Made by a program: the position numbers and the translations under genes. The notes beneath the pieces are model-generated. The model saw only the letters and a program-made list of their open reading frames with translations. It ran no database searches and was not told the origin of the DNA. 64,000 nt of DNA, taken from assembly GCF_026240635.1 (NCBI RefSeq), contig NZ_CP110848.1, forward strand, positions 126,501 to 190,500, written 5' to 3'. Shown in pieces: positions 15,357-23,549 of this stretch. The stretch is from Trichothermofontia sichuanensis B231 (GTDB lineage Bacteria; Cyanobacteriota; Cyanobacteriia; B231). Within the stretch, counting starts at the first letter, position 1. Each line of letters opens with the position of its first letter.

Positions 15357-16334
15357 CTACCGCAACACCAACGGCTTATACGGCACTCCCTCTTGCAAAT
15401 GTCGCGCCATTAACCGTGCCTGTAACTCGATTGCCCGTCGATAGGTACAGCGATACTCAAACACGGGATGCTTAAACTCGTCATTCAACTTGCGCTCAAA
15501 CGCCTGCAAAAAGACCTTCCGTCCCGACTCCGACAACAAAAACGCCCCCAAACTCTCCGTAAAATCCGATCGTTGAATCTCCCGATTATTAATTACCGCT
15601 AGCACCACGTTATCCACTATCAACGGACGAAACTCCTCCATCAAGTCCAGCACCATCGCTGGTTGCCCCCGGTGCACCTCATGTAAAAAACCCACATACG
15701 GATCAAGCCCTGCCACATTCACTGCTGCCGTCACCTGCACCCGCAATAGCCCATAGCCAAAACTCAATAGCGCATTCACTGGATCTGTTGGAGGCCGCCG
15801 ATTCCGCCCCGCAAACCCCCACTCGTTGGCCAGCATTTCCTGCCAGCACCCAAAATACTCCCGCGCTGCCATCCCCTCCATTCCCCGCACTTGGTCCAAC
15901 GACTCCTGCCGCCCCACCCGCTTCTTCCACTCCTTCAACCCATTTCCCCGCTGTCCATGTCTATATAACACGGCATACTGATTCTGAATCTTCCCTGCCG
16001 CTATCGCCTTCACCAATGCCAACCGTCCCTCGGCATCGAGATACCGCCCATACTGCGCCAACCGCAACAACCCATTGCGCGAATCATGTGGCAATGCCGC
16101 CCCCAAATACCGCCCAAAACTCGATAAAAAATGCACTGACATCCCCAACTCCAGCGCATACATCAACGCATCCCCTGAGACCTGCGGATTCCCCATCAAC
16201 ACCATCTGCTGCACCGTCTGCGCTGGAACCGATCGCTTCTCCCACGACCCATCCTCCCGTTGCAACGTCACCGTAAACGCCTCATACGCCTTACCCACCA
16301 TCGCATTCGGCTGCAATACATAAAGCACTGTCAT
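15357..16334 (-). CDS. cas1: CRISPR-associated endonuclease Cas1
   Basis: Cas1 is the integrase that inserts new spacers, normally with Cas2. The 325-aa protein has an N-terminal beta domain and a C-terminal alpha domain. Catalytic-type residues are visible: Glu in RGMEGMAAREYF at about residue 150, His in GFLHEVHRGQPAM at about 218, and acidic residues in LDLMEEFRP just after. AGGAGG lies about nine bases before the ATG at 16334, which is preferred over the TTG at 16340. It is the last gene of the cas8-7-5-6-4-1 operon. No cas2 frame follows, which is unusual. Confidence 0.93.
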   Translation of the reverse strand: MTVLYVLQPNAMVGKAYEAFTVTLQREDGSWEKRSVPAQTVQQMVLMGNPQVSGDALMYALELGMSVHFLSSFGRYLGAALPHDSRNGLLRLAQYGRYLDAEGRLALVKAIAAGKIQNQYAVLYRHGQRGNGLKEWKKRVGRQESLDQVRGMEGMAAREYFGCWQEMLANEWGFAGRNRRPPTDPVNALLSFGYGLLRVQVTAAVNVAGLDPYVGFLHEVHRGQPAMVLDLMEEFRPLIVDNVVLAVINNREIQRSDFTESLGAFLLSESGRKVFLQAFERKLNDEFKHPVFEYRCTYRRAIELQARLMARHLQEGVPYKPLVLR

Positions 16335-16340
16335 TCCCAA

Positions 16341-16566
16341 AACCTCCTAAAACTCAATAACCACAAAACAATATCCCCCCCCTCCGTAGGAGAAGAACTT
16401 TAGCGAGTTCCCCTTCACCCCTAGTGGGAGAAGGGGGTAGGGGATGAGGGGGAAGACCCGTTAAATCCTTTTTTCGGATTCGTAACCCATATACCTAGTG
16501 GGCGAAGGGGTTAGGGGATGATGGGAAGACTGACCAAGCGAGAAAACCCCCAACTCCCCTTACCCA
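16341..16566. repeat. Repeat-filled gap between cas4 and cas1
   Basis: This 226-bp gap contains two degenerate copies of the CCCCTTCxCCC...GGGAGAAGGGG hairpin repeat found elsewhere in the window (near 16376-16460 and 16495-16530). No cas2 remnant is visible in any frame. Confidence 0.55.
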
Positions 16567-17160
16567 TCAGAGAGCAGGCTCAGAGCTGAGAGTTGCTAAC
16601 ATCTCCACCTCAAAGGGCAAACAAATCCCCACCAAACTACACGCTTGACATTTCCGCTTATTCGCGATCGGACCTGGCATCGGTAACCCCATTGCTACCC
16701 CCGCTGCAGCGATCGCCCCCTCCGTCGCCGCCCGCAACTCCGGCGTAAACCACACCACCTGTCGCCGCCGATTCCCGTGATAAAAAATCTCGCCAAACTC
16801 AATCACCCGTCCTGTGCGCTCCTCCAAACACATCCCCGCCGCACACAACTGAAAATGATCATTCAAATGCCGTGCCATCCGCCCCTTCTTATACTCCAGT
16901 GGCACCAACAACCCCTCCCGCTCCTCCACCCCATCAATAATCCCCTTCACCCCCAACCGCTCACTCCACACCCACTGCTGTCGATGCAACACCACCTCCC
17001 CCTCTAGCACCACCCCCATCTCATCAATATTGCGATGCAAATGCGTCCCCAACACCGTATGCTCATTCTCCGCCCACTCCCCCAACACATACTCCAGATA
17101 AAACCGCCGCGGACAATACTCCCAAGCATTCAAATACGCCAACGGCAAAAATTCATCCAT
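16567..17160 (-). CDS. cas4: CRISPR-associated exonuclease Cas4
   Basis: Cas4 trims prespacers and helps select the PAM. The 197-aa RecB-type nuclease shows a first cysteine in YCPRRFYLEY (about residue 17). The nuclease Asp is in KGIIDGVEE, followed by LVPLEYKKGR, which supplies the Glu and Lys of the D...ExK motif. The C-terminal cluster cysteines are in KRKCQACSLVGIC. Length is normal. It follows cas6 by about 65 bp and precedes cas1 after a repeat-filled gap. Confidence 0.93.
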   Translation of the reverse strand: MDEFLPLAYLNAWEYCPRRFYLEYVLGEWAENEHTVLGTHLHRNIDEMGVVLEGEVVLHRQQWVWSERLGVKGIIDGVEEREGLLVPLEYKKGRMARHLNDHFQLCAAGMCLEERTGRVIEFGEIFYHGNRRRQVVWFTPELRAATEGAIAAAGVAMGLPMPGPIANKRKCQACSLVGICLPFEVEMLATLSSEPAL

Positions 17161-17225
17161 AACGCCAAACCTCCAATCAATACTCCCCCTCGCCCATCTT
17201 GGGAGAGGGGGTCGGGGGGTGAGGG

Positions 17226-18236
17226 CTACATCAACCGCGCCTGTCCCATCCCCATCGCCGTCTTGCGGCCAACCCCCGCAAAAAACGCAAAATGCGCCAA
17301 AATTGTCGCCAAGCGTGCCTGCTCTTCATCCGGAAAGCAATAGCGCACCCACCCCGACGCCCCAATCTCCGACCCACCCTCCATCCGCAACGCCCGCGTC
17401 TTCAACTCAAACGCGGCTGTCAACCCCTCCCACACCACCGGCCCGATCGCCAACTCCGCCGGCGCAACCCCATTCCAGCGCCGCCGCAAATTCTCAAACA
17501 CCAACTCCGGCAACAAAAACGGCTGCACATACCCATCCAACTTAAAACTCGTCGGCGTAAACAACCGCAACTGCAACTCCCGCTGCACCGGCACCGCCAT
17601 CAACTCCTCAAACCGACGCGCCTCCACCAGCTGCACAAACCGCCCCAACCGGCAGTTAACCCCCGCCAGCGTTATCATCCCCCCCAAATCCCCACTCATG
17701 CCCCACAACAACGGCGCTAACAGATCCGATCGCAACAACCCCACCCGCAACCACTGCTCCCCCGACTTCGCCCGAATCAACGTCACCGTCAACGGCATCG
17801 ACTCCTGCCCATGCAACCCCACCGCCAAATCCGGATCAGCCGCCGCCAGCCACCGAAAACACTGCCCATGCAACGCCCGCCCCACCGTCGGCGGCAACGA
17901 CGCCTCACTCTCAACGGGCACCTGGATCACCCGCAACGGGCACCGATCCACCTCCACCCCCGCCACCGTATACAACCGCCCTAACCAACTCACTGCCGTC
18001 TCCAGACCCACTTGCGCCTGTACCTGCTGCAACAGCGCCCCATACCCCGTCGCCCTGGGCAACACCGGCATCACCCGCACCCCGCCGCCATCCTGTAACG
18101 ACACCCACACCGGTTCCGGCTCCACCCCCGACAACCACTGCTGCAACGGCACTGACGGCACCGACGCATCCGTAAATCGCAACACCACATTGACTCCTGC
18201 CAACCCTGAGGCAACCTTACCTTCAACCCTTTCCAT
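17226..18236 (-). CDS. cas6: CRISPR pre-crRNA endoribonuclease Cas6
   Basis: Cas6 cuts the CRISPR precursor RNA within the repeat. The 336-aa protein has the Cas6 C-terminal RAMP domain: PTSFKLDGYVQPFLLPELVF at about residue 230, and the glycine-rich loop FFAGVGRKTAMGMGQARL at the very C-terminus. The N-terminal half is Val-rich and divergent. It lies between cas5 (65 bp upstream) and cas4. With no array nearby, its natural substrate is unknown from this window. Confidence 0.88.
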   Translation of the reverse strand: MERVEGKVASGLAGVNVVLRFTDASVPSVPLQQWLSGVEPEPVWVSLQDGGGVRVMPVLPRATGYGALLQQVQAQVGLETAVSWLGRLYTVAGVEVDRCPLRVIQVPVESEASLPPTVGRALHGQCFRWLAAADPDLAVGLHGQESMPLTVTLIRAKSGEQWLRVGLLRSDLLAPLLWGMSGDLGGMITLAGVNCRLGRFVQLVEARRFEELMAVPVQRELQLRLFTPTSFKLDGYVQPFLLPELVFENLRRRWNGVAPAELAIGPVVWEGLTAAFELKTRALRMEGGSEIGASGWVRYCFPDEEQARLATILAHFAFFAGVGRKTAMGMGQARLM

Positions 18237-18301
18237 ATACCTACCTTCATCCCTGCGTGCCTTAGTGCCTTAGTGTCGAAAAAAAGCCCAACCTTAAGCA
18301 A

Positions 18302-19003
18302 TCAATACCGTTCATACACGTCATACTTAGCCCCCGTCGATCGCAACCGCAACGGCAGCAACCCTGTCCCAATCACCCGATCGCGCCCCACCTGCGCCTT
18401 CTCCCCCGAAAACGGATTAATCCGCCCAAACGTCGCGCTCGGCCCCAAATCATCCCACGGCTGCACCATAAACCCCGCCTCCCCACCCATCACAAAACTG
18501 GGTTCCGCCGTGTAACGTATTGCCTCTGGCAAAAACTGAAAAAAACACCCCCGCTTCCCAAAATAATTAATCTCAGCAAACAACCCCGCCAACACCTCCG
18601 CCCGATCGCTCGGCCCCACACAAATCTGCAAATTCCCCTCCAAAAACACCCACTCCCGAAACACAAACCCCGATTGCATCGGTAACGTCTTCCGGCCCTT
18701 ATCCTGCTTATCCAACACCTGATCGTAATAACGCAACGTATAGCCATTGCGATTCACCACCAACCGCTCCGGCGGCAACACATAAACCGTCAACCCCCGA
18801 ATCCACTCAAACTGCGGCCTCAACCAAGCCTCCCAGCGATCGCGCCGCCCATACCCCTCCCGTTCCAACAGCACTCGCAACAGCGCCATCTTAATCGCAT
18901 AGGGCGTCGGCACCAGATTCGATCGCCCCGCCATACTCGTCGCATCCGATCGCTTGAGCGAAAACAAACTCACCGGCTGATAACCCACCGTCAACCAAAC
19001 CAT
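18302..19003 (-). CDS. cas5: Type I Cas5 (Cascade subunit)
   Basis: Cas5 caps the 5' handle of crRNA in Cascade. The 233-aa protein is a RAMP protein by context and overall pattern: early MAGRSNLVPTPYAIKMALLR, which is typical of type I-A/I-B Cas5, and a C-terminal G-x-G-L-L-P-L-R-L-R strand. The longer frame starts at 19036 inside cas7. The ATG at 19003 follows the cas7 stop and has AGGGGCG six bases upstream, so it is the likely start. Without a profile search, assignment rests on operon position and these features. Confidence 0.8.
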   Translation of the reverse strand: MVWLTVGYQPVSLFSLKRSDATSMAGRSNLVPTPYAIKMALLRVLLEREGYGRRDRWEAWLRPQFEWIRGLTVYVLPPERLVVNRNGYTLRYYDQVLDKQDKGRKTLPMQSGFVFREWVFLEGNLQICVGPSDRAEVLAGLFAEINYFGKRGCFFQFLPEAIRYTAEPSFVMGGEAGFMVQPWDDLGPSATFGRINPFSGEKAQVGRDRVIGTGLLPLRLRSTGAKYDVYERY

Positions 19004-19016
19004 TGTCGCCCCTGCC

Positions 19017-19967
19017 TTAACCCGCGGTGACATCACGCCCCTCCCACACCTGCGCCACTTCTAACAATTCCTCAATACACGCCCCAAATTGAGCAAAACT
19101 TTCAAACGGATACAGATGAATCGTCCCTTCCCCATTCATCCGATTCAACGTTTCCGCCAAATCTGTCACCTGTCGTTGATAACTCTCCACCTGCAACGGA
19201 CTCACCATCGGAGCCGGACAGCGTTTTGTACTCACCGCCATCACCCCCTCAAAATGATCCGGGTGCGGCAAATGCGTATTCCGCTTCGCCCCATTCGGCT
19301 GCAAATAGGTATACAAAACACTTCGCAGCAACGCATCCAACCGCTGCTTCCGTTCCTCAGTTGAAATCGCGTAATCAAAACTGTGGGGATTATAGCCAAT
19401 CCGAAACGCCTCAATATTCAGCACCGTCGCATACAACCCCGAACTTACCTGCACATTATAAGGCGTCGGATTTTCCACCCCATACTTCGCATGAAAATAG
19501 CTCTGCGTCTTAACAAAACTGGGCACTCCCACCACTGCCCCAAACTCAATCACCGACTCCCGCTTCAGCGTCTTCCCCCCCTTCTCCGTCACCATAAACC
19601 CTTCCAAATCACTCAGCGCACACCGCTGCAACACCTTAGCCGTTTTTTCCGGCAACGCATCCTGAGCCGCAAACAGCGGCAAATTCTGATCAATGTCATA
19701 CCCAACCCGATCCGGATCAAACCGCTTACCCCCCTCCGACAACGCCAACCCCATCTCCACACAAACCCGTTGCAAATGTTCCGCCTGAATATGCTTCAAC
19801 ATATCCCCCGAAACCCCATTCACCAACTTCGGTTCCGCATCCCCCTTCGCCACAATGTAGTACCGCCGCGTCAACGACTGATTCCCCTCATTCCCCTCAT
19901 TATTCAGCGCATGAAGTTGCCAAGACAACAACCCACTCAACGAAATCGAAAACACCCGAAAACCCAT
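19017..19967 (-). CDS. cas7: Type I-B-like Cas7 (Cst2/DevR family)
   Basis: Cas7 forms the Cascade backbone along the crRNA. The 316-aa protein shows the DevR/Cst2 signature LHALNNEGNEGNQSLTRR at about residues 19-36, followed by NGVSGDMLKHIQAEHLQR, both diagnostic for the family. The chosen ATG at 19967 has AGGAGA about nine bases upstream; the frame itself opens at a TTG at 19985. cas8 ends 53 bp upstream and cas5 begins immediately after. The family is shared by type I-B, I-A-like and I-MYXAN systems. Confidence 0.92.
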   Translation of the reverse strand: MGFRVFSISLSGLLSWQLHALNNEGNEGNQSLTRRYYIVAKGDAEPKLVNGVSGDMLKHIQAEHLQRVCVEMGLALSEGGKRFDPDRVGYDIDQNLPLFAAQDALPEKTAKVLQRCALSDLEGFMVTEKGGKTLKRESVIEFGAVVGVPSFVKTQSYFHAKYGVENPTPYNVQVSSGLYATVLNIEAFRIGYNPHSFDYAISTEERKQRLDALLRSVLYTYLQPNGAKRNTHLPHPDHFEGVMAVSTKRCPAPMVSPLQVESYQRQVTDLAETLNRMNGEGTIHLYPFESFAQFGACIEELLEVAQVWEGRDVTAG

Positions 19968-20038
19968 CTTCATTCTCCTAATCAACTCAGTGAACCTTCG
20001 TGTCCTTCGTGCCTTAGTGGTTTCCTACCAACTATCCT

Positions 20039-21853
20039 CTACTCATCCCCATCCGCCTCCTCAACCGCGATCGCATCCTCCGCATCCCCCTCCCTAGCCT
20101 TCGTCCACCGCGCATACCCATAAGCAATCAACAAATTCGCCACCAACCCATGATCATGCTCACTAACCAACCGCACCAACCCATCCAGATCCGCCTTCGT
20201 CGGCCACACCCGCCGCAACGTCCTCCCCTCCCTCTGCAACTGCTCCGCAATCCGCAAATTCTCCGCCTCATACCGCGCCAAAAAATCCGCGATCGCACTC
20301 AAAAACTCCGTCTTCGATCCCGACTGCGTACTCAACCGCTGCGCCAAACCATACTGCCGCAACCAATCCAACTCAATCACTTGCCCCTCCGCAATTCGTA
20401 CCTTCCCCGCATACACCGTAGACTGATTAATCGCCTTCGCCACCCGGAGAAAACTAGGGTCCTGCACAATCTTCAAAAAATCATCATCAGCCTTACTCAT
20501 CAGATTTAAACCCTCCACAGAAAACAACCTTGGTGGCCGCGCCTTTGGGTCAGCCAACTGCCGCACCACATAATCCGCATAACTTACCTGAAACCCGAAA
20601 AACGCCCGCAAACTCCCACTGGCAATAAAATCCCGATAACTTGCCAACAACTCCCCCTCCCCCGCCTCCACCGACAGCGATCGCACCACCGCCAAATGCT
20701 CATTCACCAGCTCCTGATAAGCCACCACCTCCGCATAATCCACCGGTGCAATCCACCCCGGCAACCCCAAACTAAACACCTCCTTCACCCCATACACCTG
20801 CCCCTTCGAGTTAAAATGCGTCCCACTAAACCCCGTCACAAAATCATTCAACGGCTTCCCTCGCCGCCGCCGTCCCCTAAACCCAGCCACCTCCCCACGA
20901 TTCGCCTTGGCTGGATGGTGATCGAGCAACTCCTGGCAAAACCGCAAAATCAACTCTGCATCAAACCGGGCCACCCCATACCCTGCCCCCGGGAGATTCA
21001 CCTGCCGGAGCTTAGCCCACACCTGCTGATAGGTTTGCCAAGCAATATCCTTAGGAATCAGCGCCACCACCCGCCAGTCATACCCGCGCTCCGCCACCTT
21101 CACCCGTTCTGCCAACCCCAGTTGAAACAACCCCGCTGCAATCAACCACAAACTGAGCCAATCTATCTTCTGCGGCTCCACCTTATTCGTATCCGCCTTC
21201 GCCCGATTCACCCCCTGCACTGTTGTCGGCAGATAAACCTTTACCGCACTCGCCGGGGGTGGCACCGCACAGCCCGCCGACTGCAACCGATCCACTACCT
21301 GCGCGATCGCCGCCTCATGACTTAGTGGTGGCTCCTGACTAAAAGCCCGGATTAACTCCGCCACCAACAGCCCATAGTGTTCCCGTAGCTCCCAAGCCCC
21401 CAACCACAGGTTATTATGGTTGCTATCGTGGCGCATCGCAGTCAAAATCACCCCATTTTGCGTCCGGGCATCCGGCGGCTCCGGCATCTCCTCCGGGCGA
21501 TCAGTGGCCAACCGTTGCTGATTGCGATACTCCCGATAAACCTTCCGCCGCTCCGTTTGTGCGACCACATCAAACGCTGACACCAAGTCCAACGGCAACT
21601 TAGCCACATTCGTCTTTCCCCCCTGCACCGGTGGAAACGGATTGGGATTCCCCGGCGGCAAATGAGCGATCGCCGCCACATCGATCGCCCGGTTAAACAC
21701 CAAACCAAACCCACTCCCCCGATCCACTAGCTGGCTATCTACCTGCTGCTGACTCCGACGCAACGCCTCCTCCACTACCAGCGCTACCCCCAACGCCCCA
21801 AACACATCCGCATAGGTATTAAACCGCTTCGGAATCACCAACCCGTGCACCAT
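20039..21853 (-). CDS. cas8: Type I Cas8 (Cascade large subunit)
   Basis: A 604-aa protein that begins the operon and occupies the position of Cas8, the PAM-sensing large subunit. It starts MVHGLVIPKRFNTYADVFGALGVA, a cyanobacterial Cas8a/b-type opening. No HD or helicase motif is present, so it is neither Cas3 nor Cas10d. A basic patch (FRGRRRRGKPLND, about residue 325) could contact nucleic acid. The ATG at 21853 or the GTG at 21859 may start it. The call depends mostly on the neighbouring cas7-cas5-cas6 genes. The subtype is best described as I-B-like. Confidence 0.8.
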   Translation of the reverse strand: MVHGLVIPKRFNTYADVFGALGVALVVEEALRRSQQQVDSQLVDRGSGFGLVFNRAIDVAAIAHLPPGNPNPFPPVQGGKTNVAKLPLDLVSAFDVVAQTERRKVYREYRNQQRLATDRPEEMPEPPDARTQNGVILTAMRHDSNHNNLWLGAWELREHYGLLVAELIRAFSQEPPLSHEAAIAQVVDRLQSAGCAVPPPASAVKVYLPTTVQGVNRAKADTNKVEPQKIDWLSLWLIAAGLFQLGLAERVKVAERGYDWRVVALIPKDIAWQTYQQVWAKLRQVNLPGAGYGVARFDAELILRFCQELLDHHPAKANRGEVAGFRGRRRRGKPLNDFVTGFSGTHFNSKGQVYGVKEVFSLGLPGWIAPVDYAEVVAYQELVNEHLAVVRSLSVEAGEGELLASYRDFIASGSLRAFFGFQVSYADYVVRQLADPKARPPRLFSVEGLNLMSKADDDFLKIVQDPSFLRVAKAINQSTVYAGKVRIAEGQVIELDWLRQYGLAQRLSTQSGSKTEFLSAIADFLARYEAENLRIAEQLQREGRTLRRVWPTKADLDGLVRLVSEHDHGLVANLLIAYGYARWTKAREGDAEDAIAVEEADGDE

Positions 21854-22152
21854 ACCCACATTCCCCGATACGACTTCCCCTATCCGTAGCCAATTAGTAC
21901 ATAAAAACTAAAAAGATAAGGCCAAACCTCTCCCCCGAACCAGATCGTCAGTCAGGTTCACCCGCATCATTTTCCCCATTATGCACAATGCTGGAAGTAG
22001 CCTCTTCCGATTCAAGGCTCTGGGTACAGGTCAACCAACTCTGGCCGGACAACCGCATCCCCTGGGACGAACAGGCACGGTCTCCAGCACCCTGTCTTGA
22101 TGAATGTCGGGTCAATGATGATGGGAGGAGTTGTCACAACCGGGGTAAGCTG

Positions 22153-23031
22153 ATGAGCCAAGGACCCACAGCAGTGACGGCAGTGGTGAAGTCCCTCAAC
22201 CAGGCCGAGCAATTATTTGGCCTCAGCCGCACCACTGATTGGCGGTTCTTTCCTGAATGGCAGTCTCCCAACGTTGGACTGACCCCTGGTGAAGAGGCTG
22301 CCCTCGATCGCATTAAAACCAGTTACAGCCTTTACCTAATTGACTCAGTACACAGTTAAGGTCTGGAGCTTGATCCGACCCGCAGCCCTCATCCCCCAAC
22401 CCCTTCGCCCCACTTGGGCGAAGGGGGGCCGGATTTTCAAGTCCCTCTCCCGCTCTGGGAGAGGGATTTAGGGTAAGGGCCGTACCAGCAGGCTGCACCC
22501 AGCCTACTTCTGTAAAACTGTACTTTATGATTGAGATAAAGGCTGTATCTCTACAACAGTGCTGATGGCCCACTCACAGAAAGCACCATCAACTTACTGT
22601 TAATTTCACCTCTCTTGTATTTAAGTGGCTTTTGTGATCCTCCCTTTAAGCTTCGCGGGGAAGAATCTATTGAAATTGAAGTGGGAGAAGATGACAATGT
22701 TCTCAAGGGACGCCTAGATGCCCTCGTTTTACAAGATCGATTGTGGCTAGTTTTAGCAGAATCTAAGGAAACTAAGCTTTCCTTCTCTATCGCCATCCCC
22801 CAAGCCCTGGCATATATGATGGCCAGTCCTAACCGCAATGATCCTTGCTTCAGCCTAGTGACTAATGGCGACGGTTTTCTCTTTATTAAGCTGGTTAAAC
22901 AACCTCGCCCTCTTTACGACCTTTCAGATGATTTTTCGCTCTTTAAGCGCTCCCATAATGACTTATATACTATACTTAAAATCCTAAAAAATTTGCAACA
23001 AAAATTTACAGCGATCGCTACAGGAGAATAA
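22153..23031 (+). pseudogene. Type I restriction/PD-(D/E)XK-like gene split by a MITE
   Basis: Two halves of one gene flank the MITE at 22326-22545. The N-terminal half (ATG 22153, GGGGTAAG upstream) ends LDRIKTSY, where the MITE then supplies a stop at 22357-22359. The C-terminal half reads YNSADGPLTESTINLLLISP through LKGRLDALVLQDRLWLVLAE. Deleting the element plus one TA joins the halves in the same frame into a 218-aa protein (TSY-LYNSADGPL). The family resembles cyanobacterial proteins annotated as restriction endonuclease subunit R (HsdR_N-like), with D...ESK nuclease-type residues. Excision would restore it; as it stands it is broken. Confidence 0.85.
22326..22545 (+). mobile_element. 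MITE family A, complete copy 1 (IS630/Tc1-like)
   Basis: A 220-bp element starting CAGCCTTTACCTAATT and ending with the near-complement GAGATAAAGGCTG, flanked by TA at 22324-22325 and 22546-22547. Inside are two G/C-rich hairpins (CCCCTTCGCC/GGCGAAGGGG and CCTCTCCC/GGGAGAGG). It has no coding capacity. TA duplication is characteristic of IS630/Tc1-mariner transposases. The internal sequence recurs at 23.3, 42.6, 49.1 and 61.1 kb. Confidence 0.88.
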
Positions 23032-23195: not shown

Positions 23196-23549
23196 CTAGA
23201 AATTACGACCTCTCTGCCGGGACATACAGACGACAAAGCTACTATTGGTGATTTTGTTAAAATCTTGCCAGAGGAATTAAGGCAAGAATTTGAAGTTACA
23301 GTATTTACCTCAATCATAAAGTACAGTTTTATCGGAGTAATCTGGATGAGGCCCGCTGGTGAGGGTTGCCTTCTCCCCACCTAGGAGAAGGGGTTGGGGG
23401 ATGAGGGCTGCTGGTCGGATCAAGCTCCAGACCTTAACTGTGTACTGAGTCAATTAGGTAAAGGCTGTAAGCAAGTTTCTCAAAAGGATATTGAGCACGG
23501 GTATACTCATTGTTGTTGCTGTACCTCAGTAGGCCAGGAAATGTTATAA
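23196..23549 (+). pseudogene. Unidentified ORF remnant interrupted by a second MITE
   Basis: The frame LEITTSLPGHTDDKATIGDF...ELRQEFEV reaches the MITE at 23299. After the element, KQVSQKDIEHGYTHCC continues to a TAA at 23547-23549. Removing the MITE and one TA joins them in frame (61 codons open). No start codon is present downstream of the TAG at 23193, so only the 3' part of a gene survives. I do not recognise the family. The TATAAT at 23545 inside the stop region might serve as a -10 box for phzF. Confidence 0.45.
23299..23467 (-). mobile_element. MITE family A, complete copy 2, inverted
   Basis: A 169-bp copy in the opposite orientation to copy 1, with ends CAGTATTTACCTCAATCATAAAG and GGTAAAGGCTG (outer bases shown). 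TA flanks it at 23297-23298 and 23468-23469. It lacks about 50 bp of the interior relative to the 220-bp copies. Copies 1 and 2 lie in opposite orientation about 750 bp apart. Confidence 0.85.

What the first reader, a model, noticed from the sequence alone, without database searches (positions are those of the whole stretch)
22153..23031. MITE insertion splits a restriction-like gene, and exact excision restores the frame
The 220-bp element at 22326-22545 is flanked by TA. Removing it plus one TA joins LDRIKTSY to LYNSADGPL in the same frame and recovers a 218-aa protein of an HsdR_N-like family. The two halves show no other damage, so the insertion is probably recent and the gene might be switchable by excision.
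Basis: partly seen in the sequence, partly recalled or inferred. Interest (0 to 1): 0.75.

Follow-up and report, generated by a model that had tools for sequence, protein, structure and literature searches.

The report
Gene split by a mobile element
In a hot-spring cyanobacterium, one of about 175 copies of a small mobile DNA element has landed inside a spare nuclease-like gene and broken it; this is ordinary gene damage, and the mobile element's normal way of leaving would not be expected to repair it.

Summary
A 220-bp element (22326-22545) flanked by TA splits an HsdR_N-like gene. Taking out the element and one TA gives an open 218-aa frame. Relatives match it without a gap across the junction, and the three nearest have a single TA there, in the same tyrosine codon. 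The genome is Trichothermofontia sichuanensis B231. The element is an IS630/Tc1-mariner-type MITE with 353 terminal-repeat matches in this genome, about 175 copies. Among 58 well-bounded copies, this is the only one inside the body of a conserved gene. The insertion looks fairly young. The gene has four intact paralogues here, so its loss is probably tolerated. The 'switchable by exact excision' idea is not supported. Frame restoration is a tautology for any TA-duplicating insertion into an intact gene. Excision by ISY100, the best-studied relative, leaves 4 extra bases; here that would stop the frame at codon 65. Every IS630-type transposase found in the genome is broken. MITE-split genes are already known in cyanobacteria. 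More curious is the MITE's core, a pan-cyanobacterial triplex-motif repeat inside IS630-type ends.

The parts
22153..22323 (+). 5' part of the split HsdR_N-like gene (57 codons, holds the invariant FF.EW motif of the family)
   Evidence: open, aligns with homologues; no Pfam hit on its own
22324..22325 (.). TA target-site copy 1
   Evidence: a single TA at this codon in L046, L047, L048
22326..22545 (+). 220-bp MITE with IS630/Tc1-mariner-type terminal inverted repeats; the core holds two intrastrand triplex-type hairpin motifs on opposite strands
   Evidence: family; folds, z = -6.7; triplex motifs; terminal-repeat comparison
22546..22547 (.). TA target-site copy 2 (also the TA of the Tyr codon that continues the gene)
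22546..23031 (+). 3' part of the split gene (161 codons plus stop); holds all candidate catalytic residues (E, G-x-[IL]-D, E-x-K, Q)
   Evidence: HSDR_N E = 5e-4 for ORF 22615-23031; invariant columns
23299..23467 (-). second, shorter MITE of the same family (169 bp, TA-flanked, inverted relative to the first), 267 bp after the gene's stop codon

Best explanation
An ordinary transposon insertion mutation. A non-autonomous IS630/Tc1-mariner-type MITE, one of about 175 in the chromosome of Trichothermofontia sichuanensis B231, was mobilised in trans by an IS630-family transposase. It inserted at the TA of a tyrosine codon (codon 58) in a 218-aa HsdR_N-like (PD-(D/E)XK-type) gene, duplicating the TA. 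Translation from the normal start now stops 11 codons into the element, giving a 68-aa product without any catalytic residue. Shown: the insertion, the TA duplication, uninterrupted homologous sites, the family of copies, and the intact flanking halves. Inferred: mobilisation by an IS630-type transposase (from TA targeting and terminal-repeat similarity), loss of function, tolerance of the loss because paralogues exist, and irreversibility in practice.
For: Joined frame of 218 aa. Gap-free alignment with homologues across the junction; the two closest have identical residues there. Single TA in the homologous codon of three relatives. The gene family is conserved (dN about 0.2 with dS saturated against L046; invariant E66, D112, K128, Q140, with E126 nearly invariant). 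TIR family of 353 ends, TA on both sides of well-bounded copies. The outer 28 bp of the MITE end match the end of an IS630-type transposase gene in another cyanobacterium at 24/28 and the own-genome IS630 end at 20/28. Four intact paralogues plus two degraded ones in the same genome. Precedent: 15 of 147 MITEs in Anabaena sp. 90 disrupt ORFs (PMC3542288).
Against: No conspecific strain or same-genus genome was available, so the empty site is shown in homologous but non-syntenic genes, not at this very locus. The 3' ORF (TTG at 22615) keeps all catalytic residues and could in principle still make a shortened protein.
Confidence: 0.93

Rival explanations
1. Reversible switch: the MITE is excised precisely in some cells and restores the nuclease-like gene.
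For: Both halves are undamaged. Exact removal gives a conserved protein. The element is strongly self-complementary, a property that can favour RecA-independent deletion between direct repeats (general knowledge).
Against: The only direct repeat at the ends is the 2-bp TA. Cut-and-paste excision by the related ISY100 leaves TATATA, that is 4 extra bp (PMC2170065); the equivalent scar here shifts the frame to a stop at codon 65. All IS630-type transposase copies found in this genome carry stops, frameshifts or truncations. Frame restoration on exact removal is automatic for any such insertion. No scar or empty site was found, but no conspecific strain was available.
Confidence: 0.03
2. The split gene is still partly functional: the 3' ORF (22615-23031, TTG start, 138 aa, or a start nearer the MITE end) makes an N-terminally truncated nuclease-like protein, perhaps transcribed from within or through the MITE.
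For: The 3' ORF keeps the E, D, E-x-K and Q residues and scores slightly better on HSDR_N than the joined protein.
Against: It lacks the conserved N-terminal FF.EW segment and two predicted helices. The start is a TTG without an obvious ribosome-binding site (sequence). The MITE's long hairpins would hinder transcription (inference).
Confidence: 0.1
3. The two halves are separate genes or chance ORFs, and the MITE happened to land between them.
For: None found.
Against: One continuous gene in every homologue examined, with identical residues across the junction in the closest two.
Confidence: 0.01

Closest known systems
MITE-disrupted ORFs in Anabaena sp. 90 (PMC3542288)
   Same: Cyanobacterial genome with well over 100 MITEs, a minority of which sit inside ORFs and create pseudogenes; strongly folded elements.
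   Different: Different MITE families. There, no link of the MITE ends to an IS was found; here the ends resemble IS630-type ends.
IS630/Tc1-mariner family, ISY100 of Synechocystis (PMC2170065)
   Same: Insertion at TA with TA duplication; short terminal inverted repeats; cyanobacterial host.
   Different: Here the element is 220 bp with no transposase gene, and the terminal repeats differ in sequence from those of ISY100 (not compared base by base here).
Intrastrand triplex motif repeats (PMC4666352)
   Same: The MITE core contains two C/T-hairpin plus G/A-third-strand motifs (CCCTCTCCC..GGGAGAGGG..GGGTAAGGG and CCCCTTCGCCC..GGGCGAAGGGG..GGGGATGAGGG), the same layout as the motifs that paper reports as abundant in cyanobacteria.
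   Different: Here a pair of them is carried between IS630-type terminal repeats and dispersed at TA sites.
Type I restriction enzyme R protein N-terminal domain (Pfam HSDR_N, PF04313)
   Same: Same nuclease-type motif region; 37 of 38 family members match at E <= 0.01 (best 5.8e-9).
   Different: Stand-alone ~210-aa protein with no helicase part and no hsdM/hsdS among the neighbours examined; most single members score below Pfam's curated cut-off.

Membership tests
MITE (non-autonomous DNA transposon) | short, non-coding, terminal inverted repeats | tested here: met
   220 bp; ends match in 20 of the first 28 bases; fold z = -6.7
MITE (non-autonomous DNA transposon) | multiple dispersed copies with target-site duplication | tested here: met
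   353 terminal-repeat matches in the genome; TA on both sides of well-bounded copies
IS630/Tc1-mariner-derived MITE | TA target-site duplication | tested here: met
IS630/Tc1-mariner-derived MITE | terminal repeats shared with an IS630-type transposase-bearing element | tested here: inconclusive
   20/28 with the own-genome IS630 end and 24/28 with an IS630 end in another cyanobacterium (G035, L120); no element with identical ends and an intact transposase was found
IS630/Tc1-mariner-derived MITE | mobilised by an IS630 transposase | not testable with these tools
   needs a transposition assay
HsdR_N-like PD-(D/E)XK nuclease | conserved D and E-x-K active-site residues with a preceding helix-borne E and a following Q | tested here: met
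   E66, D112, E126-x-K128 and Q140 invariant or nearly so in 38 homologues; all present in the joined protein
HsdR_N-like PD-(D/E)XK nuclease | profile match to HSDR_N above Pfam's cut-off | tested here: inconclusive
   joined protein 19.3 bits against a cut-off of 25.1; 37 of 38 homologues match at E <= 0.01
HsdR_N-like PD-(D/E)XK nuclease | alpha-beta-beta-beta-alpha-beta core fold | tested here: inconclusive
   AlphaFold2 model of the intact homologue L046 (pLDDT 87.8) has the expected order of helices and strands, but Foldseek gave no PDB match at E <= 0.001
Type I restriction system | hsdM and hsdS partners and a helicase domain | tested here: not met
   stand-alone ~210-aa protein; the neighbours checked here are cas genes, and in relatives trpA, a leucyl-tRNA synthetase and opcA; not all neighbours were scanned

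The most novel reading that the evidence does not exclude
The MITE is lost precisely at a measurable rate in the population (for example by RecA-independent slippage helped by its strong hairpin), so the nuclease-like gene is a true on/off switch beside a CRISPR-cas locus.
Probability: 0.03. Interest if true: 0.6.

Novelty: new member of a known kind. Interest (0 to 1): 0.18.

Why it matters
It is a clean example of a MITE insertion with uninterrupted homologous sites in relatives, which fixes the boundaries and TA duplication of the main MITE family of this chromosome. It also shows why 'removal restores the frame' is not evidence for switching. The by-product of wider use is the finding that a pan-cyanobacterial triplex-motif repeat has been put between IS630-type ends and has spread to about 175 places in one genome.

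Tried and rejected
Full-length autonomous partner: the longest unit bounded by MITE ends (1219 bp, L153) holds an ABC-2-type permease-like ORF between two ends of the same type, not a transposase. G035 and G063: G035 has IS630-type ends similar to the MITE ends beside a transposase C-terminus; the G063 matches are other short elements. Rfam: no match over the MITE. PDB sequence search with the gene family: only a weak MmeI match (E = 0.077). PDB fold search: no significant match; the top hits were mitoribosomal proteins and are not interpreted. Synteny between the split gene and relatives L046, L047, L048, L049, L053: no shared neighbours. Link of the gene family to CRISPR: PADLOC has a 'CAS-associated PD_DExK' model that matches 36 of 38 members, but relatives and a paralogue sit beside trpA, a leucyl-tRNA synthetase or opcA, so adjacency to cas genes in this window is probably chance.

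Full report
What is there. The window lies at 126501-190500 of a 4,436,989-bp single-contig genome. That is exactly the published size of Trichothermofontia sichuanensis PKUAC-SCTB231, a hot-spring cyanobacterium (PMC10172474). At 22326-22545 lies a 220-bp element flanked by TA. It interrupts a frame that begins at ATG 22153 and ends at TAA 23029-23031. With the element in place the frame stops at codon 69, having read 11 codons of the element, and contains five stops within the element. With the element and one TA taken out it is open for 218 codons.

The gene is real and the junction is exact. Intact homologues occur across cyanobacteria: 36 of 59 sampled genomes have at least one match. The two nearest, from hot-spring metagenome genomes (L046, L047; 71-73% identity), read LDRIKTSYLYNSADGPL without gap or insertion across the junction, and all full-length homologues compared are uninterrupted there. 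At the DNA level L046, L047 and L048 have a single TA inside the same tyrosine codon. These are homologous genes that share no neighbours with the window locus, not the same locus in a sister strain; no other genome of the genus or family was offered by the tools.

What the gene is. Thirty-eight homologues align with invariant or nearly invariant FF.EW near the N-terminus, then E66, G-x-I-D112, E126-x-K128 and Q140 in L046 numbering, the pattern of a PD-(D/E)XK nuclease. Pfam HSDR_N matches 37 of 38 members at E <= 0.01, best 5.8e-9, but the joined protein alone scores 19.3 bits against a cut-off of 25.1. The AlphaFold2 model of L046 is confident (pLDDT 87.8) and has the helix-strand order expected of that fold, but Foldseek found no significant solved structure. 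'HsdR_N-like' is therefore right as a family label. 'Restriction' is not shown: it is a stand-alone protein. B231 carries four other intact copies and two degraded ones. Long-term purifying selection is evident (dN about 0.2, dS saturated against L046). All candidate catalytic residues lie in the 3' half.

What the element is. Terminal-repeat pattern matches number 174 and 179 on the two strands, against 0 for the reversed-pattern control, so about 175 copies. The commonest length is 220 bp, and the well-bounded copies have TA on both sides. TA targeting is the hallmark of the IS630/Tc1-mariner superfamily. The outer 28 bases agree with the end of an IS630-type element of the same genome at 20 of 28 positions and with the end beside an IS630 transposase C-terminus in another cyanobacterium (G035, L120) at 24 of 28. 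The parent is thus very probably an IS630-type element, but no copy with identical ends and a working transposase was found. All DDE_3-type transposase copies found in B231 carry stops, frameshifts or truncations. The four best-preserved ones share the same TGA after 163 codons.

The core of the element. The middle ~95 bp matches sequences in 169 of 291 sampled genomes of the class, mostly without the terminal repeats; the terminal repeats match in only 4 of the 291. The core consists of two hairpins on opposite strands, each followed by a G/A tract that mirrors its purine strand. That is the layout of the intrastrand triplex motifs reported to be abundant in cyanobacteria (PMC4666352). The MITE therefore looks like IS630-type ends around a repeat that is widespread in its own right. 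This is inference from distribution, not a demonstrated origin.

How old. In 657 bp the two gene halves carry no second stop or frameshift. This copy has 2 positions unique to it among 30 aligned copies, where the range is 0 to 11. Its nearest sister is 94.5% identical. The insertion is therefore not old compared with the family, but the family shows no sign of a burst going on now (no pair above 94.5% in the 30).

How unusual. Of 58 well-bounded copies parsed from the window and about 90 stretches, this is the only one in the body of a conserved gene. One other (L183) lies at the 5' edge of a transporter-like ORF, before its probable start. In Anabaena sp. 90, 15 of 147 MITEs disrupt ORFs (PMC3542288). 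A MITE in a member of a multi-copy gene family is what tolerance of insertions would predict.

Is it switchable? The argument 'exact excision restores the frame' is true of every insertion with a target duplication in an intact gene, whatever its length. The relevant question is whether exact excision happens. For ISY100, the cyanobacterial IS630 element studied in vitro, transposase cuts at the 3' ends and two bases inside the 5' ends, and religated donors carry TATATA, that is 4 extra base pairs (PMC2170065). The same chemistry here would leave TACATA or TATGTA, shift the frame and stop at codon 65. The direct repeat available for slippage is 2 bp. With no intact transposase found as well, the split gene is best read as a pseudogene in being, not a switch.

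Verdict. Observation confirmed; insertion and rough youth supported; switching not supported. Ordinary, well-documented kind of event, with a somewhat interesting chimeric MITE family as by-product.

Noticed in passing
22384-22482 and family copies: The MITE core is a pair of triplex-type hairpin motifs found in 169 of 291 cyanobacterial genomes, while the MITE ends occur in only 4: IS630-type ends seem to have captured and spread a pan-cyanobacterial repeat.
   Followed up: partly
15357-21859, minus strand: CRISPR-cas locus of I-A-like make-up (Cas8a-like, Cas7, Cas5a, Cas6d, Cas4, Cas1) next to the split gene and divergent from it; no repeat array found within 5000-26000.
   Followed up: partly
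L086, L088, L089, L090 (own genome): Four IS630-type elements 97-99% alike all carry the same in-frame TGA after 163 codons, so a defective element seems to have multiplied, presumably helped in trans.
   Followed up: no
L153:1119-2341: An ABC-2-type permease-like ORF lies between two MITE ends of the same type, 1219 bp apart and TA-flanked; it could be two MITE pieces around a gene or a unit able to move.
   Followed up: no
23299-23467: A second, inverted MITE copy just after the gene; the 3' half of the gene lies between two inverted copies, so recombination between them could invert it.
   Followed up: no
G063 loci L110, L113, L116: Another cyanobacterium carries ~117-bp elements with ends that start with the same 14 bases TACAGCCTTTACCT, a separate small MITE family.
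   Followed up: no
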